From Nostoc linckia FACHB-104 (GTDB taxonomy: Bacteria > Cyanobacteriota > Cyanobacteriia > Cyanobacteriales > Nostocaceae): a DNA stretch of 64,000 bases. Below are positions 17,950 to 56,169 of this stretch, piece after piece. A program made the translations under genes and the position numbers. The DNA lies in assembly GCF_014696615.1 (NCBI RefSeq), contig NZ_JACJQJ010000038.1, positions 1-64,000 on the forward strand, given 5' to 3'. How positions within the stretch are numbered: position 1 is the stretch's first letter; every line of letters starts with the position of its first letter. The notes beneath the pieces are model-generated. The model did not search any database. It was not told where the DNA came from and was given only the letters and a program-made list of their open reading frames with translations.

Positions 17950-19479
17950 ATGAAGAAAAATATACATAGGTATCAGGTAAAGGGTAAAAAACAAGTGGCG
18001 TTCAAAATCCCAAATGGTAAGAAGTTCATTTCTGCTTTGGTAATTGCTTTTGCCTTTGTACTTTTTACTTTTAACTTTTCTCAGGCGGCGACAGCAGCAG
18101 CCAAGCATTACACAGAGTTACAGCTACCGCCATTACCTGAGATTAAGTTACCCAAGTATGAACGCTTTGTAATGCAAAATGGCATGGTTGTCTATTTAAT
18201 GGAGGATCACGAGTTACCATTAGTAGGCGGTACAGCTTTGGTGCGGACAGGAAGCCGCTTAGAACCTGCAGATAAAGTTGGCTTGGCTGACTTTACAGGT
18301 GAGGTAATGCGAACTGGCGGAACTAAGAAGCATTCGGCTGATGAACTCAACGAATTGTTGGAACAACGCGCCGCATCAGTAGAAACTGGGATTGGTGAAA
18401 CTTCTGGTAGTGCTAGCTTTGAAGCACTGACGGAAGATTTAGAAACAGTGTTTGGGTTATTTACTGAGGTGCTGCGAGAGCCAGTATTTGCCCAAGAAAA
18501 GTTAGAATTGGCGAAGACACAAGAGAAGGGTAGTATTGCTCGCCGCAATGATAATCCCAATTCTATAGCTGGTCGAGAATTTCGCAAATTAATCTATGGG
18601 AAAGATAGCCCCTATGCTCGCACCACAGAGTATGCAACTATCGATAAGATTTCCCGTGAGGATTTGGTGAAATTTTATCAGCAATATTTCTACCCGAATA
18701 ATATAATTTTGGGCATTATAGGTGATTTTGACCCGAAGAAAATGCGATCGCTCATTCAAGCAAAATTAGGCGATTGGAAATCTAACCCTAAACTAGCTAA
18801 ACCCCAATTACCGCAAGTATCCCAAGCGAATACTAACGGAGTATTTTTTGTCAATCAACCGCAATTAACCCAAAGTAATATTTACATAGGGCATTTGGGA
18901 GGAAAGCTAGACAGTGTAGACTATCCAGCTTTGGATGTAGTCAATGGGGTATTGAATGGCTTTGGCGGACGCTTATTTAATGAAGTGCGATCGCGTCAAG
19001 GTTTAGCTTATTCAGTATACGGTCAATGGAGTCCCCGTTACGATTATCCCGGAGTTTTCATTGCTGGAGGACAAACGCGATCGCAAACTACTGTGCAGTT
19101 CGTGAAATCTCTACAAGCTGAAATTAAGCGCCTGCAAACTCAAAGAGTCACCCCACAAGAATTAGCTTTTGCGAAGGAATCTACACTCAATTCTTTTGTT
19201 TTCAACTTTGAAGATCCCAATCAAACTATCTCGCGGTTGATGCGATATGAATATTACAGCTATCCTGCTGATTTCTTATTTCGCTATCAAAAAGCAGTCG
19301 CAGCCACAACTACCGCCGATGTACAACGAGTAGCAAGAAAATACCTCAAACCAGAAAATTTAGTAACTCTGGTTGTGGGAAATCAAACTGCTATTCAACC
19401 GCCATTGACACAACTAGCAAAGCAAGTAACACCTATTGACGTAACGATTCCCCCTGCACAACCACAAGCCAAAAACTAG
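17950..19479 (+). CDS. M16-family peptidase-like protein, non-catalytic partner
   Basis: 509 residues, 32 bases after the catalytic paralogue, so clearly co-transcribed. An N-terminal hydrophobic segment (residues about 25-50) ends at S-Q-A-A, a signal peptide. The peptidase_M16 fold is intact, but where H-x-x-E-H should be it has A-D-F-T-G-E-V-M-R-T-G-G-T, so no zinc can be bound. The R/Y pair motif typical of inactive partners is suggested by G-F-G-G-R-L-F-N-E-V-R-S-R-Q-G-L-A-Y. Known bacterial M16 heterodimers pair one active and one inactive subunit, which fits. AAGGG precedes the ATG. Confidence 0.92.
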   Translation: MKKNIHRYQVKGKKQVAFKIPNGKKFISALVIAFAFVLFTFNFSQAATAAAKHYTELQLPPLPEIKLPKYERFVMQNGMVVYLMEDHELPLVGGTALVRTGSRLEPADKVGLADFTGEVMRTGGTKKHSADELNELLEQRAASVETGIGETSGSASFEALTEDLETVFGLFTEVLREPVFAQEKLELAKTQEKGSIARRNDNPNSIAGREFRKLIYGKDSPYARTTEYATIDKISREDLVKFYQQYFYPNNIILGIIGDFDPKKMRSLIQAKLGDWKSNPKLAKPQLPQVSQANTNGVFFVNQPQLTQSNIYIGHLGGKLDSVDYPALDVVNGVLNGFGGRLFNEVRSRQGLAYSVYGQWSPRYDYPGVFIAGGQTRSQTTVQFVKSLQAEIKRLQTQRVTPQELAFAKESTLNSFVFNFEDPNQTISRLMRYEYYSYPADFLFRYQKAVAATTTADVQRVARKYLKPENLVTLVVGNQTAIQPPLTQLAKQVTPIDVTIPPAQPQAKN

Positions 19480-19558
19480 CATCCTACTGTACATTTCATT
19501 TGATAATATTTGCGAATCTGCTGTAAGCAGATTGCACGTTGGTGAGGTACAGATAATT

Positions 19559-19790
19559 GTAAGGGCAAGGCAGTGCCCATACGTTTCAACTTAACGTGAA
19601 ACCCGCTTAGTTGCAAGGTTTCGCCCTCACCCCCAGCCCCTCTCCCACCAGGAGAGGGGAGCAAGAGATTTAATTCCCCTTCTCCTGCGGGAGAAGGGGT
19701 TAGGGGATGAGGGCGCGGGTATTTGTACAACACGCACTGTATATAGCTTTTAGCTTAAGTTGACACGAATGGGCAGTGCCTTGCCCCTAC
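19559..19790. mobile_element. MITE-like element with 36-bp terminal inverted repeats
   Basis: Left end 19559-19594 begins GTAAGGGCAAGGCAGTGCCC, and the right end 19755-19790 is its complement with four mismatches in 36 positions. Inside lies a second palindrome of CCCTCACCCCCAGCCCC...GGGGTTAGGGGATGAGGG type, a repeat widely dispersed in cyanobacteria. 232 bases, no transposase; a minus-strand open frame across it is an artefact of the repeats. Confidence 0.7.
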
Positions 19791-19833
19791 CTATGTAACT
19801 CATTTACCTAAAATAGGCTGTAATTTTTCCGCA

Positions 19834-20019
19834 TCAAATAGTATTCCTATAATACAGCCGATCTAAAATTTGCTTTGTTTTCAAAAGTGTTTTCATGTAA
19901 GTGACTTGACTATGCCAAGCAGAACGAGGTAACAGATGTATATTTTGCATTTTATCTGTTAATAAATTCTCGCTAATTACTGCTTCTTGTATTGTTATAT
20001 TCTCTGGATTTTCTGCCAT
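19834..20019 (-). CDS. Short hypothetical protein or gene remnant
   Basis: 61 residues from ATG 20019. Sequence is polar and unremarkable, with I-Q-E-A-V-I-S-E-N-L-L-T-D-K near the N-terminus and L-L-P-R-S-A-W-H-S-Q in the middle. There is no clear ribosome-binding site. It lies about 200 bases beyond the radical SAM gene on the same strand, with a dispersed repeat between them. It may be real or the leftover of a longer gene. Confidence 0.3.
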   Translation of the reverse strand: MAENPENITIQEAVISENLLTDKMQNIHLLPRSAWHSQVTYMKTLLKTKQILDRLYYRNTI

Positions 20020-20065
20020 AATTATTGTTCTAGAATTCAATAATCAATGCGATATAAAAGCTTAT

Positions 20066-20123
20066 ACCAATTTACAAAAAGAATACGACAGATTGTAGGG
20101 GCAAGGCAATGCCTTGCCCTCTA
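20066..20123. repeat. Dispersed palindromic repeat (GACAGATTGTAGGG family)
   Basis: TACCAATTTACAAAAAGAAT followed by ACGACAGATTGTAGGG and the palindrome GGGCAAGGCAATGCCTTGCCC. A second copy with the same flank but a different stem (GTCACGGCACTGCCGTGAC) is at 48637-48693, and a reversed remnant is near 56561-56578. Compensating changes in the stem suggest selection on the hairpin. Confidence 0.6.
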
Positions 20124-20214
20124 GCATATATTGATGTGTCGCCAACATTATTTGAATTAGTATTATTTCTTTTTAGCTATTCCCTTTTATACGCAAGAAT
20201 TTTACAGTCAACCG

Positions 20215-21465
20215 TCATCCGTCAACCGTCATCAGTAAATTAGATTCAGTCTGCCAATTTTCTGACCAATTAATACTATCTGCACTAAACTTTAATGAAT
20301 CGTTTTCTGGTAAGGGAGCGTCTATCGGCTCGACAATTAGCTCAAATTCTCCATTATCAAAAGGAAGTCCTGGAGCTTTGACTTTGGGAACTACTCTCTC
20401 CCGCAAACCTCGTTCTTGATGGACAAGAGCGCGATGATGACAGTAAGGATTGTTACCTCTCTTATCAAAGAAAACGTGAGCAGTCCAACTGCAACCCCCA
20501 CGACAAAGTTCTGCAAATTCGCAGGTTTGGCAAAAACCCCAGAGATGGCTTGTTCCTGCTCCCAAATTGAAACGCAATTCCTCTGTATTTTCAACAATAT
20601 CTTTGAGAGAACGGTCTCTGATATTACCACCTGTATAGGCTGTTGTCGGGAGCGAAGGACAACCTTTAATCGCTCCGTCAGCTTCTATTCCTAAGGTAGA
20701 AAGCCCAGCACCGCAACCTTGCCAAAATGAGAATTCATGCTCGTTACCCCGTCCCCGTAACAACCTTTCATAGGGGCCGTAGTAACCAATGTTATTTCCC
20801 GCCTGAACTTGCACTCCTTCGTCATAAGCACGACGAACTACACGAGCAATCATCGGGTAAATATCTAGCAGTTCATAAGGTTGGAGGAGGATATCTGCAT
20901 TATCGGCTGCATTTCCCATCGGAACAGTCAACTGAATTTGCCAAGCACGAGCGCCTGCATCACGTATGCATTCATAAATCTGGGGAAACTCTGGCGCTGA
21001 TAAGCGGTTGATTTGGGTATTGCAACCAAAAGCAATACCAGCTGTTCGCAGATGACTCATGGTTTTAAACGCATACTTCCATGAGCCTTTTCTTCCCCGT
21101 AGGCGATCATGAGTTGCTTCTAAGCCATCGATAGAAACCGAGACAGTACGTATACCCGCCGCTTTCATTTTTTGTGCAGTTTCTAAAGAAATACCATAAC
21201 CGCCAGTAGTCATTCCGCAGAGCATCCCCGCCTCGGTAATGGCTTTAGCTATTTCCAGCCAGTCTGGACGCAAAAAGGCTTCTCCACCAATGAGGGTAAC
21301 TTCTTTAATCCCCACTTCTGCCATCTGTCTCACCAGATCCAAAGCTTCCTCTGTGGACAGTTCTTGACTGCGTTCATGTCCAGCGCGGGAACCACAATGA
21401 TTACAAGCTAAATTGCATTTTAAGGTGATTTCCCAAACTGCATAACTTTTGCGGCGGTATGTCAT
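20215..21465 (-). CDS. Radical SAM/SPASM peptide maturase (candidate RiPP-modifying enzyme)
   Basis: 416 residues. The [4Fe-4S] SAM motif C-x3-C-x2-C is C17-N-L-A-C21-N-H-C24. Radical SAM TIM-barrel follows with T-L-I-G-G-E-A-F-L-R (GGE motif) and S-V-S-I-D-G-L. The C-terminal SPASM region has many Cys (C-G-A-G, G-C-P-S-L, F-C-Q-T-C, A-E-L-C-R-G-G-C-S-W, N-P-Y-C) for auxiliary clusters. Such enzymes modify ribosomal peptides. The gene is 39 bases after a double-glycine precursor gene and close to a Nif11-type precursor with L-Y-G motifs; a PlpX-like splicease is one candidate activity, thioether or cyclophane formation are others. The last codons (L-M-T-V-D-G) run into an STRR. Confidence 0.88.
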   Translation of the reverse strand: MTYRRKSYAVWEITLKCNLACNHCGSRAGHERSQELSTEEALDLVRQMAEVGIKEVTLIGGEAFLRPDWLEIAKAITEAGMLCGMTTGGYGISLETAQKMKAAGIRTVSVSIDGLEATHDRLRGRKGSWKYAFKTMSHLRTAGIAFGCNTQINRLSAPEFPQIYECIRDAGARAWQIQLTVPMGNAADNADILLQPYELLDIYPMIARVVRRAYDEGVQVQAGNNIGYYGPYERLLRGRGNEHEFSFWQGCGAGLSTLGIEADGAIKGCPSLPTTAYTGGNIRDRSLKDIVENTEELRFNLGAGTSHLWGFCQTCEFAELCRGGCSWTAHVFFDKRGNNPYCHHRALVHQERGLRERVVPKVKAPGLPFDNGEFELIVEPIDAPLPENDSLKFSADSINWSENWQTESNLLMTVDG

Positions 21466-21504
21466 GGTTCACCCCTAAAAATTTCAGAGAGTTACTAATT
21501 TTTG

Positions 21505-21843
21505 CTATTTGTTTGGTTTATCAATTGCTCTAATCTTAACAATCTCTAACTCATAATTTGGGCCATATTTGTTAATAGTTTTGACCTTGACTTTATCAAA
21601 ACCCGCTAGCCCGTAGTAGACATCAGCATCATAATCATCACCAGATGCGAAAGCAACTCCAAGACCCTTTAATTTAGCACCACCATTCTTTTTAACTTTC
21701 AGGTCGAGGTCGGTCTTAGTATAAGTAAGACTATCATCACCAATAGCTGAAGCAATAGCTCCTATGATAGCACTTGCGCCACCTGCTACCGGTTGGTTTT
21801 CTGGAGCATTTTCTAAATACGATAAATCTTGGATTAATAGCAT
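21505..21843 (-). CDS. Double-glycine leader precursor protein
   Basis: 112 residues from ATG 21843, with AAGAAAGAG directly upstream; six earlier codons up to a TTG are discarded. Residues 1-22 form a leader with I-Q-D-L-S-Y-L-E and P-V-A-G-G, matching two other small genes in this region (24765 and 25978). After G-G comes a small-residue helix (A-S-A-I-I-G-A-I-A-S-A-I-G), then a polar beta-rich part with Y-Y-G-L-A-G-F and N-K-Y-G-P. Cleavage after G-G by the C39 peptidase exporter at 30151-33204 is expected, releasing about 90 residues. Function of the product unknown: bacteriocin-like or signal protein. Confidence 0.72.
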   Translation of the reverse strand: MLLIQDLSYLENAPENQPVAGGASAIIGAIASAIGDDSLTYTKTDLDLKVKKNGGAKLKGLGVAFASGDDYDADVYYGLAGFDKVKVKTINKYGPNYELEIVKIRAIDKPNK

Positions 21844-21905
21844 TGCTCTTTCTTTAGCCAACTTTTTGGTTTGATATTTAAAAATGACAAACTGAATTAG
21901 CCTTA

Positions 21906-22044
21906 GAGATTATTTATAAAGTAAAAATAAAATTATTGTAGGATGCGTTAGGCGCTAGTTTCCAAGATGATTTGTCACGAAATAACTATCCTAGCGCCTA
22001 ACGTATCATCCATGCGGCAGTGCATTACTTTATAAATGGTCTCT
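21906..22044. mobile_element. MITE-like element, copy 1, abutting the Nif11 stop codon
   Basis: Ends carry AGAG-AxxATTTATAAAGTAA in inverted orientation (left GAGATTATTTATAAAGTAAA, right TTACTTTATAAATGGTCTCT), with an inner inverted pair GCGTTAGGCGCTAG / CTAGCGCCTAACG. About 139 bases, no coding. A second copy with the same ends is at 27649-27806. The right end touches the TAA stop (22044-22046) of the Nif11-type precursor. Confidence 0.7.
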
Positions 22045-22493
22045 TACTCTAGTTCTTGTGGTGCAACTACTCCATATAAAGCTTGTACAGGTGGATCAAT
22101 GACTATGCCATATAGAGGTTGAGGTTGTGGATCTATTGGTCTAGGAAAAGGAATTGGATAGGGTTTGGGTATTGGTCGAGGATAACCTTGGGGAGGCCAA
22201 TTAGGATAACCTTTAGGAGGCCAATATTTAAATTTATCATCAATGATTGTTAGACCCCCAATAGCTCCTATTAATTCCTCCTCGTTGAGGTCTTCAAACT
22301 GACCTATTTCTTTTAATTCTAGGATTTTAATAGCAGCTGTTTCAAATTCTTCTTTAGAGAAGATATAACCGCTATTTTGCAAAATTTCTTTAACTTCCTC
22401 CGTTTTTTCACTCATGAGTTGAGTGCGAAAAGCTTCATCTTTAACAAGTTTAATCAGGAAGTATTTGACTTTTTCTAAAATTGATAAAGACAT
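22044..22493 (-). CDS. Nif11-type leader peptide precursor with Pro/Tyr-rich core and two L-Y-G motifs
   Basis: 149 residues. Residues 1-80 are a Nif11-like leader: K-V-K-Y-F-L-I-K-L-V-K-D-E-A-F-R, a helical Glu/Lys-rich middle, and E-E-E-L-I-G-A-I-G-G with G-G at 79-80. The core (81-149) has no Cys, contains the repeat W-P-P-K-G-Y-P / W-P-P-Q-G-Y-P at 91-105, a Pro-x run (P-I-P-K-P-Y-P-I-P-F-P-R-P), and two similar units P-L-Y-G-I-V-I-D-P and A-L-Y-G-V-V-A-P with Y-G 12 residues apart. X-Y-G is the motif cut by PlpX-type radical SAM spliceases in cyanobacterial precursors. AGGAGGT precedes the ATG. A MITE sits on its stop codon, so the tail may be truncated or changed. Confidence 0.85.
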   Translation of the reverse strand: MSLSILEKVKYFLIKLVKDEAFRTQLMSEKTEEVKEILQNSGYIFSKEEFETAAIKILELKEIGQFEDLNEEELIGAIGGLTIIDDKFKYWPPKGYPNWPPQGYPRPIPKPYPIPFPRPIDPQPQPLYGIVIDPPVQALYGVVAPQELE

Positions 22494-22556
22494 ATTTTGA
22501 ATTACCTCCTAGAAGCAGGTAGTATGACAAGATTTATCGGGTAAAAGCAGCTAGTA

Positions 22557-24299
22557 CTAAGCGTAAATCAGAGTCTCATGCTTACTTTGTTTTTGAAGTA
22601 GTTGTTCCAAATTTTGGTGAGCTTCTTTTAAGTCTGGCTTTAGAGAAATGGACTGCTGATAGTAAGCGATCGCATTTTGAAAATCCCCTAGCTGTCTACA
22701 TTTGCAGCCTAAATCGTTGTTCATCTGTGCGTAATGAGCTTGTTTGTCTGGGGAGAGTTTTCCTTGAGCATGAAGCGCATTTGCTAGGTTAACCTCGGCT
22801 TCCATACAGTCAGGCTGTAGTTCTAAAGCTTTTTGATAGCAGGCGATCGCATCTTCCCATTTCCCTTGCTGTTGGAGAGCGTAGCCCAGGTTATTGTATG
22901 CAGCGATCGCATTTGGTTGTAGAGTTAAGAGTTGATTATAGGTTGCGATCGCTTCCGATAACTGACCTTGAGTTTGATATAAGTTCCCTAAGCTAAATAA
23001 AGCCTTGATCAAATTTGGTTGTATCTGAAGCAGGTTTTTAAATATATTTTCAGCAGATTGGTAATCACCCTTTTGTCTCATCAACACACCTAGTCCATAC
23101 AGTGCTTCTGGGTGATTTGGCTGTAGTTCCAGAATCTGGCGGTATTCCTGCTCGGCTTTTGTGAGTCGGTTTGATCGATGATCTCGAACAGCAAGCTGAA
23201 GCGCTAAAGGAATAATCTCCTGAATATCTTGTTGCCGATTATGGTAATTCTTGTCTTTGACTACAATATGCTGAATATGGCGCTCTTGAGTTCCAAAAGC
23301 ATACTTGTATTCCTCATTCCCCATTAAAAAGTCGTAAATTTTAAATCCATTTTGAATAGCATATCGGATTGCGTCAGAATGGAGAATCAGCCCAGGTGGA
23401 GGATTTTTAAAGCTTTCATCACGGCCTGTGATGACAAATAGCATAGATTTTTGCTGAACATCAACAAAGTTAGCGATCGCTCCTAAAGGTCTGTTCCCTT
23501 GCCACAGAACCGGAAGATATAGACAATTATTTTTAAAACAATGACGTAAAATCAGATGATAGTAATTTATGTTTACGTCAAAATTTGCCCGAAATTGCTT
23601 CTTCCATCTCGACTCCCAAAACTTAAGTAGTATATCTATCTGAGATTCCAAATTATCTGCGTTAACGTGGGTGATATAAAACTCATCAGAGGTTTCAATT
23701 TTCCTTAAAAAGCGCCTAATTTTTTGGCGAGTATTGGAACCAACGTAGTTTTGCAAATAGCTATCCCAGTCATTTGGTAACGAGATATAAGGGGCAATAT
23801 AATGATCGGGATCTTTTTCATTGATGCTTTGAATGCGAATCTGACTAAGTTCAAAACTATCTTGAGAAAAACTCCTCAATAACAGAGATATCTTTGTATC
23901 TGTTGATAGAATACTTTTGACATCGAAACTAGACCAGACAAACTTTTGCTGAATGTAGGTAACAAAGGCAGAAATTACCTTTTCTTCATAACCTGGCAGG
24001 CAAATAATTCCTGTATAATCTGCCATGCTATTTCCTGCCATGCAGATTTCAGTTTCAAATGCGCCTCCATGTTGGTTTTTTAATGAAATTTTCAGAGGGA
24101 AAAAGGCAACATAAGATGAATCGTCGGTATCTGGTTTAGCAGCTAATATAAACCAAGGCTCATGAGTCTGAGGTAACCATCCAGATAACCAAACCCAAGA
24201 TAAGAAGAAATGAGCTTGAGGATCAGCCTTGTAGACAAAATCCCAATTTTCTCTAATTTTATTAAATGTTTCAAAATTATCAATTTTGTCAATATGCAT
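22557..24299 (-). CDS. GNAT-family acyltransferase fused to TPR repeats
   Basis: 580 residues. Residues about 1-345 are a FemAB/CelD-type double-GNAT (Acetyltransf_6) domain: F-F-L-S-W-V-W-L-S-G-W-L near 31-42, L-L-K-F-W-E-S-R-W and G-F-K-I-Y-D-F-L-M-G-N-E-E-Y-K near 316-330. Residues 365-570 hold about five TPRs with the A-x-x-x-Y-x-x-x-L-x-L-x-P-x pattern (L-Q-P-N-H-P-E-A-L-Y-G-L-G). Cytoplasmic. It lies 63 bases upstream of the Nif11 precursor on the same strand. CelD-like enzymes are usually tied to polysaccharide work, but GNAT enzymes that fatty-acylate Nif11-type peptides are known, so peptide acylation is possible. The TPR part might hold the substrate. Confidence 0.85.
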   Translation of the reverse strand: MHIDKIDNFETFNKIRENWDFVYKADPQAHFFLSWVWLSGWLPQTHEPWFILAAKPDTDDSSYVAFFPLKISLKNQHGGAFETEICMAGNSMADYTGIICLPGYEEKVISAFVTYIQQKFVWSSFDVKSILSTDTKISLLLRSFSQDSFELSQIRIQSINEKDPDHYIAPYISLPNDWDSYLQNYVGSNTRQKIRRFLRKIETSDEFYITHVNADNLESQIDILLKFWESRWKKQFRANFDVNINYYHLILRHCFKNNCLYLPVLWQGNRPLGAIANFVDVQQKSMLFVITGRDESFKNPPPGLILHSDAIRYAIQNGFKIYDFLMGNEEYKYAFGTQERHIQHIVVKDKNYHNRQQDIQEIIPLALQLAVRDHRSNRLTKAEQEYRQILELQPNHPEALYGLGVLMRQKGDYQSAENIFKNLLQIQPNLIKALFSLGNLYQTQGQLSEAIATYNQLLTLQPNAIAAYNNLGYALQQQGKWEDAIACYQKALELQPDCMEAEVNLANALHAQGKLSPDKQAHYAQMNNDLGCKCRQLGDFQNAIAYYQQSISLKPDLKEAHQNLEQLLQKQSKHETLIYA

Positions 24300-24545
24300 C
24301 TCACTGTTTACCTCAGCGATAATATTCTCATACTTCTTGGGTTAGGCTAGTTTCTCCTTAAGTTAAAGTTTAGAAAAGTATCTTGTGCAACATAAAAATC
24401 CAGGTAAAACTAACCCAATTTATTAGTAGAAAATAGTAGTTGAAAATTTCGAGTAAACTTTGCAGCTTTGAAGATATTCTCACATTCTCTTACAAAGCAG
24501 CATTGTTTTATTCCTTAACTAAGTAGTATTGATAATCTACCTATT

Positions 24546-24752
24546 GGGACTTCCATAAATTAAATTATCCATTTTTCGGAGCGAAGACCATAATTATATT
24601 ATTCCTCTGACTTGAAAGTGCTGAGTGCTGAGTGCTGAGTGCTGAGTAAAAATCCCCCCTCGACTTTCATACTTGGCTATGAAAATTGTTTCATCGGGAC
24701 TGCCTCCTCTGCTTGCAAAAGCAGTTGATTATCTTTTTATTTGGAGGTTCCT
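24546..24752. mobile_element. MITE-like element, GGGACTTCC family, copy with STRR insert
   Basis: Begins GGGACTTCCATAAATTAAAT and ends TTTTTATTTGGAGGTTCC, the inverted form. An inner pair matches the copies at 8919 and 48703. The middle carries four GTGCTGA heptamers (24618-24647). No coding. It lies between the GNAT-TPR gene and the precursor at 24765, filling most of a 465-base gap. Confidence 0.55.
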
Positions 24753-24764
24753 TAGATGAGACTA

Positions 24765-25082
24765 TTAACTTCCGTTGTAATAAATTGAAGTACTTTTACT
24801 CCAAGATTTAGCAGTTTGGTTGCCAGTGTTTCCATAAGCTATGGCTTGTGCATCGGCTCTAGTAGACTCAGCACTACCCCAGTTTTTAACAGTTGTGTTG
24901 GCTACAGTGTTTGTATAAGTGTTATCACCAATAGCAACTGCACCTGCAACTGCTGTTGCAGATCCAGAATTGGCTGAAGTTCCGGTGACTGTAACAGCGT
25001 AAACATAGCCACCTACTACAGGGCTGCTTTCGTTAAGGGGTTGTAAATAACTTAAGTCTGAGATGATTAATAGCTTTCTCAC
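24765..25082 (-). CDS. Double-glycine leader precursor protein
   Basis: 105 residues from GTG 25082, with GAGG nine bases upstream; the longer frame to 25139 has no better signal. Leader residues 1-25 contain L-L-I-I-S-D-L-S-Y-L and S-S-P-V-V-G-G. The product is rich in Ala, Thr, Ser, Gly and Asn, with A-V-A-G-A-V-A-I-G-D-N resembling beta-roll or YadA-head type repeats, and R-A-D-A-Q-A-I-A-Y-G-N near the end. The A-D-A-x-A-Y-G block and the S/T-rich tail are shared with the precursor at 25978, so the two are paralogues in the mature part as well. No Cys. Likely trimmed and exported by the nearby PCAT. Confidence 0.7.
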   Translation of the reverse strand: MRKLLIISDLSYLQPLNESSPVVGGYVYAVTVTGTSANSGSATAVAGAVAIGDNTYTNTVANTTVKNWGSAESTRADAQAIAYGNTGNQTAKSWSKSTSIYYNGS

Positions 25083-25219
25083 ACCTACCTCACGAGAAAT
25101 TTTGAGACAACTCAGGAATGTGGATTGAATAATATCCAATACTTTGGCTAGGGCTTTGGCAATAATAAAGCCTTAAAAGATAGAGATTGTTATAGGTTCT
25201 TGAACCCACAATCTTCAAT

Positions 25220-25456
25220 TCAGTAACCTGAAGAACTGCTGCTAGAACTAGATGCAAAGGAATGACTGGAATGAGATTTTGCATAACTCCTAGAACTACT
25301 GCCAGATGAAACATTGACGGAAACGGTTTGGCTAGTTTCACCTTCACCATCACCAGATGTTTGCACTACGCTTTTCGCTTCGGCAATAACCTTACCATCG
25401 GGTGAGACTATGCGTTTAACTACAATTTTCTGCTGATTCATGAGTTGAACAACCAT
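25220..25456 (-). CDS. Small Ser-rich protein of unknown function
   Basis: 78 residues (or 73 if ATG 25441 is used). The N-terminal half M-N-Q-Q-K-I-V-V-K-R-I-V-S-P-D-G-K-V-I-A-E-A-K looks like a beta-hairpin; the C-terminal half is low complexity, with a run of eight Ser near the end before G-Y. There is no double-glycine leader and no signal peptide. It sits between two candidate precursor genes on the same strand. It could be a scaffold, immunity or substrate protein of the peptide system; nothing in the sequence decides this. Confidence 0.6.
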   Translation of the reverse strand: MVVQLMNQQKIVVKRIVSPDGKVIAEAKSVVQTSGDGEGETSQTVSVNVSSGSSSRSYAKSHSSHSFASSSSSSSSGY

Positions 25457-25505
25457 TTTACTGATTGAAAAAATTGCGATCGCTTTGATGCGATCGCATC
25501 AAATA

Positions 25506-25817
25506 CTAACTGGTTTTTTTAGAGTATGAAAAGGCATAAATACGGTCACCTATACTTCCAGATCCTCCAGCAAGGATATGTTTCCCATCTTGCCTAGAAG
25601 CTCGATATCCGTAATTTTCGCCTTTTTGATCACCAAAGATTTCCAGCAAATATTCACCTTTTTGTTCTGAAGATAATTTATCAAATTCCGGAATGCTATT
25701 TGTTAACCAGTCTAATAGATCAAGTTCCCGTTGTTCCTCTTCTAATAATCCGCCTTGAACGCAGCTACCAACAATTGTTTCACAAATGCTTAAATCATGA
25801 ATCTTTAATGCGCTCAT
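25506..25817 (-). CDS. Small protein with a possible double-glycine leader
   Basis: 103 residues from ATG 25817, behind AGAGGT. Residues 1-23 include L-K-I-H-D-L-S-I-C-E and C-V-Q-G-G, which follow the leader pattern of the neighbours (I-x-D-L-S, then V-x-G-G), but less closely and with two Cys. The following segment is acidic and helical (L-L-E-E-E-Q-R-E-L-D-L-L-D-W-L), then I-L-A-G-G-S-G-S-I-G-D-R-I-Y-A. It may be a fourth exported precursor or an accessory protein. Confidence 0.55.
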   Translation of the reverse strand: MSALKIHDLSICETIVGSCVQGGLLEEEQRELDLLDWLTNSIPEFDKLSSEQKGEYLLEIFGDQKGENYGYRASRQDGKHILAGGSGSIGDRIYAFSYSKKTS

Positions 25818-25977
25818 ATGACCTCTTAAAGCCATTTATAAAGATAGCCAGAAACTCTTTATATTTAGTTTCTGGCTGCTTTAAATTATAGGTATACCGA
25901 TTTCAGATACCAGCCAAAAAATTGATTTACTAGCTGAATAGATGAGAATCAGTATCTCAAACTTCGACTGCTAATAA

Positions 25978-26238
25978 TTAGTTAGTAGCAGCAATAGAAA
26001 CGCTAGTAGAAGAGTATGGAGTGACGGTAGCAAAGGTTTGGGTTAGAGTATCTTTACCATAAGCATCAGCTTCAGCAGTAGCAAGATTACCTTTAACATA
26101 TGTCTTCGACACTACATTTTTTTTAATTTTGAAGTACTCGTTGAAGTAGATATCGCTGTAGTCATAACCTTGGTTAAAACCACCTACAACATTAGCAGAC
26201 TCAACGTTTTCTAAAAGATTTAAATCAGAAATAATCAT
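25978..26238 (-). CDS. Double-glycine leader precursor protein
   Basis: 86 residues from ATG 26238; AGGAG seven bases upstream fixes this start over the longer frame. Leader of 20 residues with I-I-S-D-L-N-L-L-E and N-V-V-G-G. The product is Tyr-rich at its start (G-Y-D-Y-S-D-I-Y-F-N-E-Y-F) and ends with A-E-A-D-A-Y-G-K-D and a Ser/Thr-rich tail, similar to the product of the gene at 24765. No Cys. First gene of the small-protein series downstream of the parvulin-like gene; it probably starts a transcript, as about 290 AT-rich bases precede it. Confidence 0.72.
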   Translation of the reverse strand: MIISDLNLLENVESANVVGGFNQGYDYSDIYFNEYFKIKKNVVSKTYVKGNLATAEADAYGKDTLTQTFATVTPYSSTSVSIAATN

Positions 26239-26551
26239 TTGGTTTCTCCTGAGAATCAATCATTGTCTGGGATTTATTTTGAGCAATCTCTTTTTATCGC
26301 TCACATTAATACTTTAGCTTATTCACCAAAAAAGTCAATATGTTTTGCCGTTTTTTAAATAAAGAAATATTAAAATAGGAGCTTAAAAATATTAATCAAA
26401 ATATTAGCAATTAACGCGATCAAAGAACACAAAAATCTGAGCAATACACTTTAAAGCCTTGCTCAGAATAAAGATAGAGATTATTTTTATTTATGAATTA
26501 AATTTTTAATTCATAATATATTGGAGCTATCCAATCATATTTATTATTAAA

Positions 26552-27334
26552 TTAAGCTTGCTTTAGCAATTCCTCTTGTGTTTGCAAATTAGTATTTAAA
26601 TCTAACTGTGTAAGCATTGCTATTCCTTCTACTTGTTGCTTTAACCAAGCAGTAAATAATTCCGAAATAATTTTTTGGTGCAATTGCTCATCTAATTTGG
26701 GTTGAATGATTTCTTCCACCCAAATCAAATACACTCCTTTGAGAGTTGTAATTGGTTTGAGGAGTTCTGGTGGTTTAGCTGCAAATACGGGTGCTGCTAT
26801 TTCTGGGCGAAAATCTTTCCGATATCTGACTCCTTGATATCCATATGCACGTCTTTGTTCTGGTTCTGAAATATATAAACGAGCTATTTCTGGAAATGTA
26901 ATTTCCCCTTCTTCCAGAGCATAAAAAAGTTCCAGAGCTAAGTCCCTATCCTCAAAATTGACTTCGTAAGTGGCTGCTGCATCGTAATCTAGCCGATTAT
27001 CATAAAAAAACTTTTCGACTTGCGCGGAAAAAAGATGATTCGCCAACTTTTTAGAAATCAGGCTGTTATAAACTAGTTCCTCAAAATCTTTGACAGATAA
27101 ATGGTGTTTATCTAACCAAGCCCAGGTTTCTTTCGCAGTAACGAGTTTTTTATCTAACCTGAGTTTGTCTCCCTCTTCTTGTAATTGTGCTTCTGTAACT
27201 TCAATACCAGCTTCCTGAGCTGCTTCGGTAATGATTTGTTGAGATAGGATAGTGTTTACAACATCAGGAATCTGACAAGATAGTTTGAGGCTATGTATTA
27301 AGTCTGAAGTAGAGATGGTTAGATATTCGGGCAT
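26552..27334 (-). CDS. SurA/parvulin-type peptidyl-prolyl isomerase-like protein
   Basis: 260 residues from ATG 27334 (GAAGGA seven bases upstream). The N-terminal half is a helical SurA_N-like chaperone part; residues about 130-225 resemble a rotamase domain (Y-E-V-N-F-E-D-R-D-L-A-L-E-L-F, F-P-E-I-A-R-L-Y, L-L-K-P-I-T-T-L-K-G-V-Y-L-I-W-V-E-E). No signal peptide is seen, so it may act inside the cell on precursor peptides before export. Cyanobacterial C39-exporter clusters often encode such a protein next to the HlyD and ABC genes. Confidence 0.82.
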   Translation of the reverse strand: MPEYLTISTSDLIHSLKLSCQIPDVVNTILSQQIITEAAQEAGIEVTEAQLQEEGDKLRLDKKLVTAKETWAWLDKHHLSVKDFEELVYNSLISKKLANHLFSAQVEKFFYDNRLDYDAAATYEVNFEDRDLALELFYALEEGEITFPEIARLYISEPEQRRAYGYQGVRYRKDFRPEIAAPVFAAKPPELLKPITTLKGVYLIWVEEIIQPKLDEQLHQKIISELFTAWLKQQVEGIAMLTQLDLNTNLQTQEELLKQA

Positions 27335-27391
27335 GGCGCTATCCTTCAATTATTAGTTTGATAGCTGTTAGTGGTTAGAACGCCTCTCCAA

Positions 27392-28419: not shown

Positions 28420-29967
28420 CTATATATCTAAACCACCTTTTTGGAGTTTCTTAAAGGGATCTAAGACAAAATCAATCACCCGACGCTGACGAATAATTAC
28501 TTCTGCGTTGGCTGACTGTCCGGCGGTTAAGGGAATACGTTTTTCGCCGTTTTGAATGTACTGTTTATCTAAGCTGATTTCTAATTCATAGGTTTCAAGG
28601 TTTCCTTGGGGTGTTTGCTGTACCTTGGAGTCAGGAGATAGCCAAGTAACTTTTCCTTGAGTAATGCCATATTCTTGGAAAGGATAAGCATCAAATTTGA
28701 TTTTGACTGGCATTCCTACCTTTAAAAAACCACTATCCTGACTGGGTATATTGGCCTTGAGGACAACACCCACATTTTTAGGCGCAATTTGGGCAATTCT
28801 TTGTCCAGGCTGTACCACAGATCCCGGCTTGCTGACGGGAAACTCAAAAATTGTCCCATCTACAGGCGATCGCACTATTCTCTGCTGTAACTGGATCTTT
28901 AAGGCTGTCACTTCGCTACGGGCTTGGAAAATTTGCGATCGCAATGCTGCAATTTGTGTTTCTATATCCTTGAGTTGTTGCTGATTTTTTAAAACTGCTA
29001 ATTTACCAGTTTGCAGTAAGCTTTGATAGCTATTTTCTTCTTCTTGTAGTCGCAGCTTTGCTTGCTCAATATCAGCCTGCAACTGGTTCATGGTTGTCTG
29101 ATAACGGCTTTGTTCCTCAGTTAAACGCAATTTTGCTTGCTGAACGTCAGATTTCGCCTTGTCGTAAAGTCTTTTACTTTCTTGTTGTTCTTTGATGAGT
29201 TGGTCAATTTGAGTCGCAGACACAGCACCATCTGTCAACAATTTACTAAAGCGCTCAACTTGTCTAGAATCAATTTTTAAACGGCTTTCAGCCGCTTTTT
29301 GGTCATTTTCCGAGGTGCTAATTTGTTGCTGTGCCTGGTTGACTAATGCCTGTTTCTCTAAATTTTGTAATTTATAAATACTCTGCTTTGTATCCAGGTT
29401 TTGTTTAGCCTGGTTAACTTGGGCAAGTTTCTCCAAAGCTTGGGATTGATTTTGTTGTTCCTGGGTACTCAGAGTTAACTGTAATTGATGTTTGAGTATA
29501 TCCAACTGTACCCTTTGATTTAAAAATCCAGTTAGTTTGGCCTCTGCTTGCTGAAGTTGTGTTTGTAACACATCAGACTCTAGTTCTAGTAAAACCTGCC
29601 CAGCTTTGACAGTATCGCCTTCTTTTACCTTCACAACCTTGACACTCCCACCAGCTTGGGAGTCCAATTTTTGAGTTGCACCTTGAGGTTCTATCCTTCC
29701 TCTAGCGCTTCCTGTCTCATCAACTTTTGCCAGTGTAGCCCAGGGTAAGGCGAGAATAGCAAAGGCTAATAGGACAGAAAATACTCCATGAGTCCAAACT
29801 CGAGGTAAGGCATCTAAAAGCTCTTCGGTACTATAGTGCAAATCGTTACTATTATCGGTGGTTGGTACAGCAACCTCAGTATATTCCTCATGGTTGCTGT
29901 AATCTGTGTAATTATTATCTTCCTCTTTAGCTAGTGCAGATGAGGAATTAACAAATGGATGTGGCAT
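28420..29967 (-). CDS. HlyD-family membrane fusion protein (secretion adaptor)
   Basis: 515 residues from ATG 29967 (the frame continues to a TTG). One transmembrane segment at about 55-75 (V-F-S-V-L-L-A-F-A-I-L-A-L-P-W-A), then a biotinyl-lipoyl-like half G-D-T-V-K-A-G-Q-V-L-L-E-L, long coiled coils (about 120-370, very Gln/Leu-rich), the second half I-V-R-S-P-V-D-G-T-I, and a beta-barrel domain. The architecture is that of type I secretion adaptors linking an inner-membrane ABC exporter to the outer membrane. It follows the PCAT gene by about 180 bases with an STRR between. Confidence 0.92.
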   Translation of the reverse strand: MPHPFVNSSSALAKEEDNNYTDYSNHEEYTEVAVPTTDNSNDLHYSTEELLDALPRVWTHGVFSVLLAFAILALPWATLAKVDETGSARGRIEPQGATQKLDSQAGGSVKVVKVKEGDTVKAGQVLLELESDVLQTQLQQAEAKLTGFLNQRVQLDILKHQLQLTLSTQEQQNQSQALEKLAQVNQAKQNLDTKQSIYKLQNLEKQALVNQAQQQISTSENDQKAAESRLKIDSRQVERFSKLLTDGAVSATQIDQLIKEQQESKRLYDKAKSDVQQAKLRLTEEQSRYQTTMNQLQADIEQAKLRLQEEENSYQSLLQTGKLAVLKNQQQLKDIETQIAALRSQIFQARSEVTALKIQLQQRIVRSPVDGTIFEFPVSKPGSVVQPGQRIAQIAPKNVGVVLKANIPSQDSGFLKVGMPVKIKFDAYPFQEYGITQGKVTWLSPDSKVQQTPQGNLETYELEISLDKQYIQNGEKRIPLTAGQSANAEVIIRQRRVIDFVLDPFKKLQKGGLDI

Positions 29968-30108
29968 GGTTATATTTCCCAAAATGGTAGTGTCATTTGT
30001 CCCTGATCATTCGTCCTTGGTCATTTGTTAAAGCCTATTTACGTTTTGGAAAAAGTTTGATTTATTACAATTAAATTGCGAATTTTCACTAATTTCAGTC
30101 AAAATTCA

Positions 30109-30150: not shown

Positions 30151-33100
30151 TCAACTGACTTGCGCTAGTTGCTGTTGATTTAGATAGTAGTAATGACCTT
30201 GTTTAGCGATTAATTCGTCATGAGTACCGCTTTCTAATAAAACACCACGATCCAAGACGAGGATTAAGTCAGCGTTGCGGACGGTGGAAAGGCGATGGGC
30301 AATAATGATACTGGTGCGCCCTTTAAGAATAGTTTTCAGGTTGTTCTGAATAATCCGTTCTGACTCTGTGTCTAGGTGGCTGGTGGCTTCGTCAAACAGT
30401 AATAACCGAGGATTACCTAACAAAGCACGAGCGATCGCTAAACGTTGGCGTTGTCCACCAGAAAGCATTCCCCCACCTTCACCGATTTGGGTTTCGTAAC
30501 CTAGGGGTAGTTGCTGGATAAATTCATCTGCTCCCGCTAATTTTGCGGCTTGAATAATTTCGTCGAGGGTGGCTTCTGGGTGCGCTATGGCAATGTTTTC
30601 GCGGATGGTACTACCAAATAGAAAGGTGTCTTGGTCTACAACACCAACTTGAGAACGAAGCGATCGCAATGAAATACTAGTTACGTCATGGCCGTCAATC
30701 AGCACTTTGCCATCTGTGGCTGGATATAAGCCTAAAATTAATTTGCTCAAGGTGGTTTTCCCCGAACCACTACGTCCGACGATCGCCACCATTTGCTCTG
30801 GCTGAATTTCAAAACTGATATTTTCTAAGACGTTATTCTTACTTTCGGGGTGATAGCGGAAGGTGACATGATCAAAGCAAATGTGACCGCGTAGCTTACC
30901 TAAGGTCTTGCGGGGTTTATTGTGCAAGTCTTCTTCTGGTTCTGCTTCTAGAACATCATTGATGCGTTCGGTGGAAATAATGATTTCTTGGAATTCATTC
31001 CACAGTTGAGAAAACCTTTGGAAAGGCCCTAAAACATTACCCACCAACATATTGAAAGCTACTAATTGTCCAACGGTGAGTTCTCCTTGAATTACCTGCC
31101 ATGCGCCAAACCAGAGCAAGGCGGTACTGGTAAAGGTATTGATGGCACCACTAAGCATGGAGAGGCGAATGCCGATCACCTGAGCATTAAAGGCTTTTTT
31201 CACCAAACTATTTAGTAGTTCTTCCCAATGCCAACGCACAGTCTGTTCAATTGCTAAGGAACGGACTGTGCGGATTCCTGTGAGGGACTCGATAATATAG
31301 CTGTTTTCTTTGGCTCCAGCATTAAAAATATCTCTGGAGATGCGGCGTAAAATCCCTGTGCTAGCTAGGGCCAGAATAAAAAATGGTGGTACGGTAACTA
31401 ACACAAATAATGCCATTTTCCAGCTATACCAAAACATCAGGGCTAGATAGACAACTAGCGTTAATAAATCCAGCACGATGGATAGGGTTTGACCAGTGAG
31501 AAAGCTTTGAATTTTCTGATTTTCTTGGATGCGGGAGACGATATCGCCTACATAACGAGATTCAAAATAAGCCAGCGGTAAGCGAAAGGTATGTTTGATA
31601 AAACCTACCAATAAAGAGACGCTAATGCGGTTAGCGGTATGACTGAGTAAATATGTCCGCACTCCGTTCATGGCAATGCTAAACAACCCAAAAACGATCA
31701 TCCCGATCCCCACGGCGTTGAGGGTCGCAATGCTGCGTTGTACGAGTACTCGGTCAAGTAATAACTGAGTAAAGATTGGGGTGACTAGACCAAATATTTG
31801 AATTAGTACCGAAGCAACAAAGACTTCGATCAGGACTTTATAGTGGGGTTTGATTAAAGCAAAAAACTTCCACAAACCGATATCCTGATTTTGAGCATCT
31901 TTGAGTAAAGATGTTGGTTGTAGTAATAATGCAAACCCAGTCCAACCTGCTTTAAATTCCTTGAGGGTAAGTTTGCGTTGCCCAAGGGCGGGATCACCGA
32001 CAATTACCTGTTTTTTGGTAATTTCATAAACAACGATAAAGTGATTGCCTTCCCAATGAGCGATCGCAGGTAAAGATTGTTCAGCAAATTTATCTAGGGT
32101 GGCTTTGACTGGACGGGTGGTAAAACCCAAACTTTCTGCTGCTGTGGCGATCGCTTGCAAAGATGCACCACTCCGGCCGACGTTGGTCATATCTCGTAGC
32201 CGATTGACGCTAAAGTGCTTACCCCAATAGCGACCAATCATCACTAAGCAAGCTGCACCACAGTCAGAGGCACTATGTTGAGCATAGAAGGGATATTGAT
32301 GAGTCAGATGTCCCCACCAATGACCTATTTGCACCTTGGGATGAGGAAAGTAAGCACGTTGTTTGGGTTCGGTTTTTTTGGGTGGAGTCTGGGAAGGAAA
32401 GGCAATCACGTTACTGCGATTGCGGGTAAATACGGCTGGGGATTTTTGTACAGTAGCGGTTTGGGGTGCTGGTGAATCAATCAATTCTGCCAATTCTCCC
32501 CAATCTTGGAGCGCTGTTTGCCAATCGCTATGGTTGAGAATGTAAGCGATCGTGGGTTGTGTAGCTTGCCAACTCCCCGGTTTCACAGCACATATGTCAC
32601 CTGGTATTAATTTACTCCCGTCTGTATGGCGTAATTCTCCTCGACGCACTACCCATAGCTGAGTTTGTGCGGTGAGGTTGGTTGGTACTGCACCAATATC
32701 TAGCTGCTGGCGCGAGAAATAAGCTAAGGCTTGCAGCATATCTTCAACGGATGCATTGCCTTTTTTTCTGGAGTTCTGGCGACACAACATTAATAAATCC
32801 CAAAGTTCTGCACGCGCAAATAGGCGATCGCGGATTTTGGGATATTTCTCTATCAAAGTTTGCAATGTCTCTTGTGGGAGATAACCCAGCTTTAAGTTCA
32901 ACGAAGATCTGGCTGAGTATGGTTGCAAACTTGCTTGGGGAAATAAAGTGAGTTCTCCAAAGGATCTACCTGGGGATAGAGTAGTAATTAAGTTCTCTGC
33001 ATTATCCAGCAACCGGACTTTACCCGCTAAGACTAAATAAATTCCTGACTTAGCCTCTGTTGCTTGCCAAAACTCTTTTGCTATTGGCGGTTCCACAATT

Positions 33101-33204
33101 TCCATCGCCGCCAAACAGCTTTGCAGTTCTTTATCTGCTAACTTCTCACCCAAAATTATGGCGAGATGTTCGCTCAGCTCTACTTGTGAAGATATTAATT
33201 GCAT
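30151..33204 (-). CDS. Peptidase-containing ABC exporter (PCAT, C39 type) with N-terminal cyclic-nucleotide-like domains
   Basis: 1017 residues. Order: a cNMP-binding-like domain (about 30-125: S-P-G-R-S-F-G-E-L-T-L-F-P) and a second, degenerate one (165-240); linker; C39 peptidase with Gln309, Cys315 (S-A-S-D-C-G-A-A-C-L), His388 (G-N-H-F-I-V-V) and Asp404 (V-G-D-P-A), a complete catalytic set; six-helix ABC membrane domain; ATPase with Walker A G-R-S-G-S-G-K-T-T and signature L-S-G-G-Q-R-Q-R. This is the plan of HetC and related cyanobacterial exporters, which cut leaders after Gly-Gly and export the product. GGAG lies eight bases before the ATG. It is the natural partner of the double-glycine precursors downstream. 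Confidence 0.95.
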   Translation of the reverse strand: MQLISSQVELSEHLAIILGEKLADKELQSCLAAMEIVEPPIAKEFWQATEAKSGIYLVLAGKVRLLDNAENLITTLSPGRSFGELTLFPQASLQPYSARSSLNLKLGYLPQETLQTLIEKYPKIRDRLFARAELWDLLMLCRQNSRKKGNASVEDMLQALAYFSRQQLDIGAVPTNLTAQTQLWVVRRGELRHTDGSKLIPGDICAVKPGSWQATQPTIAYILNHSDWQTALQDWGELAELIDSPAPQTATVQKSPAVFTRNRSNVIAFPSQTPPKKTEPKQRAYFPHPKVQIGHWWGHLTHQYPFYAQHSASDCGAACLVMIGRYWGKHFSVNRLRDMTNVGRSGASLQAIATAAESLGFTTRPVKATLDKFAEQSLPAIAHWEGNHFIVVYEITKKQVIVGDPALGQRKLTLKEFKAGWTGFALLLQPTSLLKDAQNQDIGLWKFFALIKPHYKVLIEVFVASVLIQIFGLVTPIFTQLLLDRVLVQRSIATLNAVGIGMIVFGLFSIAMNGVRTYLLSHTANRISVSLLVGFIKHTFRLPLAYFESRYVGDIVSRIQENQKIQSFLTGQTLSIVLDLLTLVVYLALMFWYSWKMALFVLVTVPPFFILALASTGILRRISRDIFNAGAKENSYIIESLTGIRTVRSLAIEQTVRWHWEELLNSLVKKAFNAQVIGIRLSMLSGAINTFTSTALLWFGAWQVIQGELTVGQLVAFNMLVGNVLGPFQRFSQLWNEFQEIIISTERINDVLEAEPEEDLHNKPRKTLGKLRGHICFDHVTFRYHPESKNNVLENISFEIQPEQMVAIVGRSGSGKTTLSKLILGLYPATDGKVLIDGHDVTSISLRSLRSQVGVVDQDTFLFGSTIRENIAIAHPEATLDEIIQAAKLAGADEFIQQLPLGYETQIGEGGGMLSGGQRQRLAIARALLGNPRLLLFDEATSHLDTESERIIQNNLKTILKGRTSIIIAHRLSTVRNADLILVLDRGVLLESGTHDELIAKQGHYYYLNQQQLAQVS

Positions 33205-55179: not shown

Positions 55180-55935
55180 GCCGTGGTGAAAATTTACAAC
55201 TATTTAACAAACAATTAAGGAGAAGAATTAAAGTGAAATCTGACACGTTGTGTACTGTAATTTCCTTTTTCTCCTCTTCTTTGAACTCCATCCATCACAG
55301 CATAAGCGGAATTTGGTTTGGGGAAAAGGTGTACCCCTGCGGGGAAGCAAGCTACCCGAACGAGAACATTCCGCTTCGCTCCATTCGTAATGACTAGTTC
55401 TAATTTGGTAAGTTTGCAGAATTGGGATGATCCCTAACCGATTAGTATTGTGCCCTTATACCAATTCTCCAAAATTCAGCAACAGATCCAAACTCAAAAA
55501 CCCTTGCGACACATGGTTTTCTTAATTTTGAATTTTGTTAGCGAGTCATCTCCCAAGGGGAGACGCTACACGAACGAGCGTCATTTTTAATTTTGAATTG
55601 GTATTACCTATTTATCGCATTATATATTTTGATTGGTATAAAACTTAAAATATCCAAAATAGTATTGAGAAACATTTCATGGATGAATTTAAAACTTTAA
55701 ATTTTACTTTGTTTTGTCTTCCTCCTATAGATATAAATTAATTGTTAATTACTGCCATCTCCTAGGAGAAACTTATATTTTCTTGTCAAAATCAATTTAT
55801 TTTATCTTAAGGTTTTACAATCTAAATTTATAAGCTTAGTGAGAATTTTCTCGACTAAAGTTTTAGATTTGGCAAAAAGACAGCAGTCAAATTTGTAGAT
55901 TCAAATCTAATTTTTAAAATAGGAGATGGACTGTC
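55180..55935. other. Gene-free stretch upstream of the Nif11 peptide gene
   Basis: About 0.75 kb, AT-rich, with dispersed words such as AATTTTGAATTTTG and GGGGAGACGCTACACGAACG. No gene visible. It contains the promoter region of the peptide gene. Confidence 0.45.
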
Positions 55936-56169
55936 ATGCCACGACAAAATGCTGCCCAACTTTTAAAAGCTGTAAAACAGGATCAAGCATTAAAACAAAA
56001 GCTCAGAGCAACAGCCAATCCAGAAGCTTTCGTTCAAATTGCAAAAGAACGCGGTTACGACTTCACAGTCGATGAACTAGAAACTGAACTCGATAATTTA
56101 TCTGAAGAAGACTTAGCCGGTATTATCAATCCGGGATGGGGCCCTAGACGGCATATTCATCCTAGATAA
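55936..56169 (+). CDS. Nif11-type peptide without a Gly-Gly site
   Basis: 77 residues. N-terminal Nif11-like helices: A-A-Q-L-L-K-A-V-K-Q-D-Q-A-L-K-Q-K-L and F-V-Q-I-A-K-E-R-G-Y-D-F-T-V-D-E-L, then N-L-S-E-E-D-L-A-G-I-I. Where other Nif11 leaders have G-G it continues I-N-P-G-W-G-P-R-R-H-I-H-P-R to the end, a short basic, His/Arg/Pro-rich tail. AGGAG precedes the ATG. There is no modifying enzyme or exporter directly beside it, so it may depend on genes elsewhere or may not be a precursor at all. Confidence 0.82.
   Translation: MPRQNAAQLLKAVKQDQALKQKLRATANPEAFVQIAKERGYDFTVDELETELDNLSEEDLAGIINPGWGPRRHIHPR

What the first reader, a model, noticed from the sequence alone, without database searches (positions are those of the whole stretch)
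22044..22493. Nif11 precursor core with two L-Y-G motifs 12 residues apart: candidate splicease substrate
Seen: residues 126-134 and 138-146 read P-L-Y-G-I-V-I-D-P and A-L-Y-G-V-V-A-P in a Cys-free, Pro-rich core; a radical SAM/SPASM gene lies nearby. Known: PlpX-type cyanobacterial radical SAM enzymes excise the tyramine part of an X-Y-G motif in such precursors, leaving an alpha-keto-beta-amino acid. Inference: two Leu-derived beta-residues could be formed in one peptide. The W-P-P-x-G-Y-P repeat upstream may hold a second kind of modification or serve as spacer.
Basis: partly seen in the sequence, partly recalled or inferred. Interest (0 to 1): 0.85.

Follow-up and report, generated by a model that had tools for sequence, protein, structure and literature searches.

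The report
Cyanobacterial spliceotide cluster with two-site precursor
A cyanobacterium carries genes for a small peptide and an enzyme pair that very probably cut a piece out of the peptide's backbone at two places, leaving unusual reactive residues; this is a new example of a known kind of peptide natural product, and two cutting sites per peptide turn out to be usual in its relatives.

Summary
Minus-strand ORF 22044-22493 encodes a 149-residue Nif11 precursor with a Cys-free, Pro-rich core and two L-Y-G sites (127-129, 139-141), 12 residues apart. The interpretation also holds as far as sequence can take it. The radical SAM enzyme at 20215-21465 passes the cut-off of TIGR04103, as does PlpX; it is 77% identical over 409 aligned residues to the PlpX of a fetched, unnamed locus that carries both published PlpA splice sites.

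Two sites are not exceptional: of 135 distinct related precursors 79 have two or more Y-G sites, the commonest spacing is 12 (14 of 93), and Leu/Leu is the commonest combination (22 of 135). [quoted passage not shown] The W-P-P-x-G-Y-P repeat varies in copy number and matches the tail of an upstream X-Y-G site in a relative, so it looks like spacer. A new member of a known kind (spliceotides). Splicing was not tested.

The parts
22044..22493 (-). Nif11-type precursor peptide, 149 aa
   Evidence: ORF; TIGR03798 and PF07862 above curated cut-offs
22254..22493 (-). leader, residues 1-80, ending in Gly-Gly
   Evidence: TIGR03798 match at residues 7-80; cleavage point inferred
22047..22253 (-). core, residues 81-149, Cys-free, Pro-rich
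22107..22115 (-). first L-Y-G site (residues 127-129), context QPLYGIVIDP
   Evidence: family flanks
22071..22079 (-). second L-Y-G site (residues 139-141), context QALYGVVAP
   Evidence: family flanks
22176..22223 (-). W-P-P-x-G-Y-P tandem (2 x 24 bp), probable spacer, perhaps left from a lost first X-Y-G site
20215..21465 (-). PlpX-type radical SAM/SPASM enzyme, 416 aa
   Evidence: TIGR04103 803 bits, cut-off 725; 77% identity over 409 aligned residues to PlpX of L103; 11 Cys present in all 87 distinct rows aligned
19834..20040 (-). PlpY-like small protein, at most 68 aa (TTG start; an ATG seven codons in is also possible)
   Evidence: same family and position in 94 of 96 loci; 10 of 25 residues identical to PlpY of L103, E 2e-4; only match in the genome
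30151..33204 (-). ABC exporter with an N-terminal peptidase-like region, candidate for leader removal and export
   Evidence: matches peptidase/export ABC models from about residue 310 on, below their cut-offs; Q..DCGAAC, H and D-P-A strings seen by reading; role inferred
28420..29982 (-). HlyD-type adaptor, candidate partner of the exporter
   Evidence: TIGR01843 239 bits, cut-off 208.65; role inferred

Best explanation
This is a spliceotide (PlpXY-type) cluster. The Nif11 precursor is made with an 80-residue leader and a 69-residue core. The radical SAM/SPASM enzyme (20215-21465), working with the tiny PlpY-like partner (19834-20040), takes a tyramine unit (C8H9NO, 135.07 Da) out of the backbone at each L-Y-G site and rejoins the ends, leaving two Leu-derived alpha-keto-beta-amino residues; the unmodified core (7915.205 Da) would lose two units (to 7645.068 Da). 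The leader is then cut after Gly-Gly, perhaps by the peptidase-like part of the ABC exporter upstream, and the product exported. Shown: gene content, family membership by sequence, motif conservation. Inferred: splicing at both sites, leader removal, export, and a protease-inhibitor-like role of the reactive ketoamides.
For: TIGR04103 is passed by the window enzyme (803 bits) and by PlpX of L103 (824.4 bits). The two share 316 of 409 aligned residues and 11 Cys found in all 87 distinct rows aligned. L103 is very probably the plp locus: its genome is the only one of 388 searched with DNA for the published PlpA3 splice site, and it has both published splice-tag cores, a PoyD-family epimerase, an NHLP precursor and a 56-aa ORF after the enzyme. 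A PlpY-like ORF follows the enzyme in 94 of 96 loci. Y-G is enriched about ninefold in 135 distinct cores, X is Leu in 108 and Met in 60 of 224 sites, with recurring flanks Q-P/A before and V/I-V/I after. [quoted passage not shown]
Against: No chemistry was tested. The match to PlpY is short (25 residues). The window's PlpY-like ORF starts 175 (TTG) or 196 (ATG) bp after the enzyme gene, with no clear ribosome-binding site by eye; in L008, L009, L012, L018 and L100 it starts 4-7 bp after, though L006, L007, L057, L059 and L088 also show gaps of 131-173 bp. No PoyD-family epimerase was found in the genome, but that search rang in no control genome. L103 is identified by content, not by name.
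Confidence: 0.9

Rival explanations
1. Only one of the two sites is spliced, most likely the C-terminal one; the upstream L-Y-G is a poor substrate or a relic, so the product holds one ketoamide.
For: In an alignment of 16 precursors of close relatives the last Y-G is kept in all 16 rows, while the upstream one is absent or shifted in several. The last Y-G lies a median of 8 residues from the C-terminus in the 131 distinct cores that have one, as in the window. 52 of 135 precursors have a single site.
Against: Both window sites carry the family flanks (Q-P or Q-A before, aliphatic residues after). Both are kept in the near relatives L006, L007, L010 and L032. Site 1 resembles the published PIRPLYGLPI tag and site 2 the AVAAxYGVVFP tag.
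Confidence: 0.2
2. The radical SAM enzyme makes a crosslink (cyclophane, ether or thioether) at the conserved Tyr instead of excising it.
For: Many radical SAM/SPASM peptide maturases do this (recalled), and the enzyme gives weak scores to several such families.
Against: Those scores are far below the cut-offs (for example DynA 66 of 450, StsB 92 of 625, 25 of 91 matches shown). The core has no Cys. The enzyme is 77% identical to PlpX and has the PlpY-like neighbour.
Confidence: 0.04
3. The W-P-P-x-G-Y-P repeat is the site of a second modification.
For: It is a clear tandem, and W-P-P recurs in 44 of 135 cores.
Against: Copy number is 2, 2 and 1 in the window, L006 and L007, and L032 has no W-P-P. 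In 33 of the 44 cores W-P-P trails a Y-G by 1-6 residues, and in L100 YWPPKGYPKP follows LYGVI directly. The one ORF of note between precursor and enzyme (21505-21861) matches no family in NCBIfam or Pfam at E 0.1.
Confidence: 0.07

Closest known systems
plp spliceotide cluster (PlpA1-A3, PlpX, PlpY, PlpD) of Pleurocapsa sp. PCC 7319, taken here to be L103
   Same: TIGR04103 enzyme (77% identity), tiny ORF directly after it, Nif11 precursors with X-Y-G in the core upstream on the same strand.
   Different: L103 has two Nif11 precursors with one X-Y-G each, an NHLP precursor and a PoyD-family epimerase; the window has one precursor with two sites, a long Pro-rich spacer, and no epimerase match in the genome (no control rang).
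Two-site Nif11 precursors of other cyanobacteria with TIGR04103 enzymes (for example L006 Calothrix membranacea FACHB-236, L007 Nostoc carneum NIES-2107, L010 Calothrix sp. NIES-3974)
   Same: Precursor, then a Gly-Gly peptide gene, then the enzyme, then the small ORF; the same two sites 12 apart with near-identical flanks.
   Different: Small changes: VVAP to VVVP at site 2, repeat copy number, Leu or Met as X at site 1.
TIGR03913 GDL-motif peptide radical SAM maturases
   Same: Second-best family, 433 bits.
   Different: Below that family's cut-off of 591.75; a different precursor type by its name.

Membership tests
PlpXY spliceotides | radical SAM/SPASM enzyme of the PlpX family | tested here: met
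   TIGR04103 above cut-off for the window enzyme and for PlpX of L103; 77% identity; joint 38-row group 100/99. That IPR026482, named for PlpX in PMC11002830 (passage), corresponds to TIGR04103 is recalled; one search makes the same link directly, given that L103 is plp.
PlpXY spliceotides | small partner PlpY next to PlpX | tested here: met
   ORF 19834-20040; family in 94 of 96 loci (the window's own copy included and some places fetched twice); 10 of 25 identical to PlpY of L103, E 2e-4. The match is short, so position and family conservation carry most of the weight; function not tested.
PlpXY spliceotides | Nif11- or nitrile-hydratase-type precursor leader | tested here: met
PlpXY spliceotides | X-Y-G motif in the core | tested here: met
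   two L-Y-G
[quoted passage not shown]
   needs co-expression and mass spectrometry
Cyclophane- or thioether-forming radical SAM maturases | score above the cut-off of such a family | tested here: not met
   of the best 25 of 91 NCBIfam matches shown, none but TIGR04103 is above its cut-off; no Cys in the precursor

The most novel reading that the evidence does not exclude
In cyanobacteria with TIGR04103 enzymes the splicease system has settled on multi-site precursors with a favoured register (an upstream P-X-Y-G site and a terminal P- or A-X-Y-G site, often about 12 residues apart, about 8 residues from the end), so the natural products are two-warhead linear peptides, for example bivalent protease inhibitors, in which spacing and X tune the target. 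The window's core would then combine in one chain the two site types that plp keeps on separate precursors. Against a strict register: only 28 of 93 intervals lie at 11-13, and 52 of 135 precursors have one site.
Probability: 0.25. Interest if true: 0.5.

Novelty: new member of a known kind. Interest (0 to 1): 0.33.

Why it matters
It adds a well-formed two-site substrate and a close PlpX relative to a class used for protein labelling (PMC10533398 passages), and a survey of natural sites: 224 Y-G sites in 135 distinct precursors, with X, flanks and spacing. The survey suggests which residues the enzymes tolerate and that double splicing is a common natural task, which can be tested directly.

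Tried and rejected
The W-P-P repeat as a modification site: thought unlikely from copy-number variation and its place after X-Y-G sites in relatives. A ~146-aa Cys-rich protein upstream in 37 of 96 loci was first taken as a PlpY candidate; dropped because none of the window's neighbouring ORFs resembles it by eye, one member had no Pfam match, and the downstream small ORF fits PlpY better. The TPR/GNAT gene 22557-24299 as a tailoring enzyme: its GNAT half was found in 3 of 96 loci, or 2 of the 53 that are longer than 17 kb (many of the others are too short to tell), and its single-sequence fold was poor (mean pLDDT 48.9), so no fold search was made. The Y-Y-G and K-Y-G of the Gly-Gly peptide 21505-21861 as further splice sites: the Y-Y-G is lost in L007, the K-Y-G kept; not pursued. 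Solved structures: six distant radical SAM sequences for the enzyme at E 1e-5, none for the small ORF at E 1. Rfam: no match at gathering score in 19000-26000. The three other Nif11 ORFs of the genome above the Pfam cut-off have no Y-G.

Limits: the loci are the best 80 of 202 from one scan (79 distinct) plus matches from 58 relatives, so they lean towards this enzyme's near kin, and some places came in from both collections. Two sets of 96 were used: the 101 loci then held less L002-L005 and L036, in which my text filter found no enzyme (the window's own L001 counted), L006-L101 less L099, plus L103. Six of 96 loci gave no precursor (L036, L040, L041, L042, L070, L097); at least L041 and L097 show Y-G ORFs, so the leader profile missed some. 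The small-ORF rows aligned were picked by a motif, so that part of their consensus is by construction. In the tree L099, below the cut-off (481.7 bits), fell on a long branch among the unresolved family rows. The key papers (Morinaka 2018; Scott 2022; Richter 2024) were not held; what they show is known here from passages of other papers, titles or recall.

Full report
What is there. The ORF at 22044-22493 lies on the minus strand and encodes 149 residues with a Nif11 leader, both curated cut-offs passed. The leader ends in Gly-Gly at residues 79-80. The core, residues 81-149, has no Cys, is rich in Pro, and holds P-L-Y-G-I-V-I-D-P and A-L-Y-G-V-V-A-P with their Tyr residues 12 apart.

The enzyme. 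The radical SAM/SPASM gene at 20215-21465 scores 803 bits against TIGR04103, cut-off 725; of the best 25 of 91 NCBIfam matches shown no other model is passed. It is the only TIGR04103 match over the cut-off in the genome. In a draw of 291 genomes of the order, 33 (the own genome included) carry one over the cut-off; in 58 relatives 15 do, again with the own genome, and of the other seven of the genus G003, G004, G005 and G007 have one while G001, G002 and G006 show none. The family is thus patchy.

Link to PlpX. PMC10533398 prints splice tags made from PlpA2 and PlpA3 type sequences and says that PlpXY of Pleurocapsa sp. [quoted passage not shown] DNA coding for the PlpA3-type site was found in 1 of 388 genomes of the order. 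The fetched stretch L103 holds two Nif11 precursors, one ending in PIRPLYGLPI and one containing AVAAMYGVVFP, a TIGR04103 enzyme (824.4 bits), a PoyD-family epimerase (617.8 bits), an NHLP precursor and a 56-aa ORF right after the enzyme, as PMC11002830 describes plp (passage). The window enzyme and this PlpX share 316 of 409 aligned residues. Eleven Cys, the CxxxCxxC triad among them, occur in all 87 distinct enzyme rows aligned. In a tree of 92 rows both lie in one group of 38 rows with support 100/99; the bootstrap had not fully settled, the outgroups have very long branches, and L099, which is below the family cut-off, fell among the unresolved family rows.

The partner. An easily overlooked ORF at 19834-20040 follows the enzyme gene. 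Its family follows the enzyme in 94 of 96 loci in which my filter found an enzyme (the window's own copy counted, some places fetched twice). The 74 distinct rows aligned share LLPRsA-W, two residues, a stretch with Y and L, and aK-aLD; they were picked by an L-P-R-x-A-W type motif, so that part is by construction. The match to PlpY of L103 is short: 10 of 25 residues, E 2e-4 in that 20-kb stretch. It is the only match in the genome. Its start is unsure: TTG, or an ATG seven codons in, neither with a clear ribosome-binding site by eye. PMC12710340 says that PlpY is too small for a true RRE fold (passage), in keeping with this size.

Are two sites special? I gathered 147 Nif11 precursors, 135 distinct, from 90 of 96 loci (the window's own not counted). 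Y-G occurs 224 times in their cores against 25.4 +/- 4.6 in 500 shuffles, and 4 times in the leaders. Four cores have none, 52 one, 67 two, 10 three and 2 four. Counting from the Tyr, the residue before it is Leu 108 times and Met 60; -3 is Gln 150 times, -2 Pro 141 or Ala 40, +2 Val 149, +3 Val or Ile 179, each of 224 sites (fewer where the core ends). Of 93 intervals between neighbouring sites 12 is the commonest value, 14 times; 28 lie at 11-13 and 65 elsewhere. Leu/Leu is the commonest combination, 22 of 135. The last Y-G is a median of 8 residues from the end, as in the window. So the window's arrangement is a typical one. [quoted passage not shown] Searches for 'spliceotide' and for family and motif names listed 15 and 6 papers. 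I looked at passages of eight held papers (PMC10533398, PMC11002830, PMC12710340, PMC10373908, PMC9505594, PMC8326336, PMC9484694, PMC11837572), no whole text, and saw no report of this cluster. The last of them lists spliceotide clusters among those annotated in cyanobacterial genomes. The class's main papers are not held, so I do not claim that this cluster is unpublished.

The repeat. W-P-P-K-G-Y-P-N / W-P-P-Q-G-Y-P-R is an imperfect 24-bp tandem. It is there twice in L006 and once in L007, and L032 has no W-P-P. In L100 the string VIQPLYGVIYWPPKGYPKP shows the same tail directly after an X-Y-G site, and 33 of 44 cores with W-P-P have it 1-6 residues after Y-G. I infer that the window's repeat is what is left, and then duplicated, of a third, first-in-line site that lost its X-Y-G. 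This speaks for a spacer.

How it works, with steps marked. Shown by sequence: a Nif11 precursor, a PlpX-family enzyme, a PlpY-like neighbour, two conserved sites. Inferred: tyramine excision at both sites (core mass 7915.205 to 7645.068 Da), leader removal after Gly-Gly and export by the ABC exporter 30151-33204 with the HlyD protein 28420-29982, and use as a protease inhibitor (PMC10373908 says that such residues confer protease inhibition; passage).

Verdict. The finding is a new member of a known kind; its two-site core is usual for the family rather than remarkable. Interest 0.33.

Noticed in passing
L008, L011, L024, L043 and others (37 of 96 loci), in most of them upstream of the enzyme (median 1.3 kb): A ~146-aa Cys-rich protein (LCPSARPE...CQHFDG...CRLA...CRWWQQEG...C.RCPQ) recurs beside many TIGR04103 enzymes; one member scanned had no Pfam match; no such ORF seen in the window's cluster.
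   Followed up: partly
32 of 96 loci, for example L008, L011, L024: Peptides of about 80-100 aa with a Gly-Gly leader and G-x-I type strings in the core recur near many of these enzymes; none of the six shown has Y-G, so they may be a second type of precursor.
   Followed up: no
L043, L047, L048, L051 and others: Genes of about 386 and 369 aa (21 and 19 of 96 loci) look by reading like an APH-type kinase and a HopA1-type protein, as in class V lanthipeptide clusters (recalled), which suggests mixed clusters.
   Followed up: no
window 22557-24299 (-): A PF13480 GNAT domain fused to TPR repeats directly upstream of the precursor; the GNAT half was found in 3 of 96 loci (2 of the 53 longer than 17 kb).
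   Followed up: partly
window 21505-21861, 24765-25139, 25978-26259 (-): Small ORFs with a D-L-x-x-L...V-x-G-G leader-like start, perhaps further peptides of the same exporter; one lies between precursor and enzyme.
   Followed up: partly
window 21937-22012 and 19559-19790: Small inverted repeats between the genes (22-nt arms, 86% paired; 43-nt arms, 84%), like dispersed elements; a related copy at 20092-20113 lies between the enzyme gene and the small ORF and may explain the gap there.
   Followed up: no
window 55918-56166 (+): A second Nif11 ORF in the window, 70.9 bits, without Y-G.
   Followed up: partly
window 26552-27349 (-): A PpiC-like protein (TIGR04500, 65.2 bits, cut-off 180); relatives lie in 48 of 96 loci.
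   Followed up: partly
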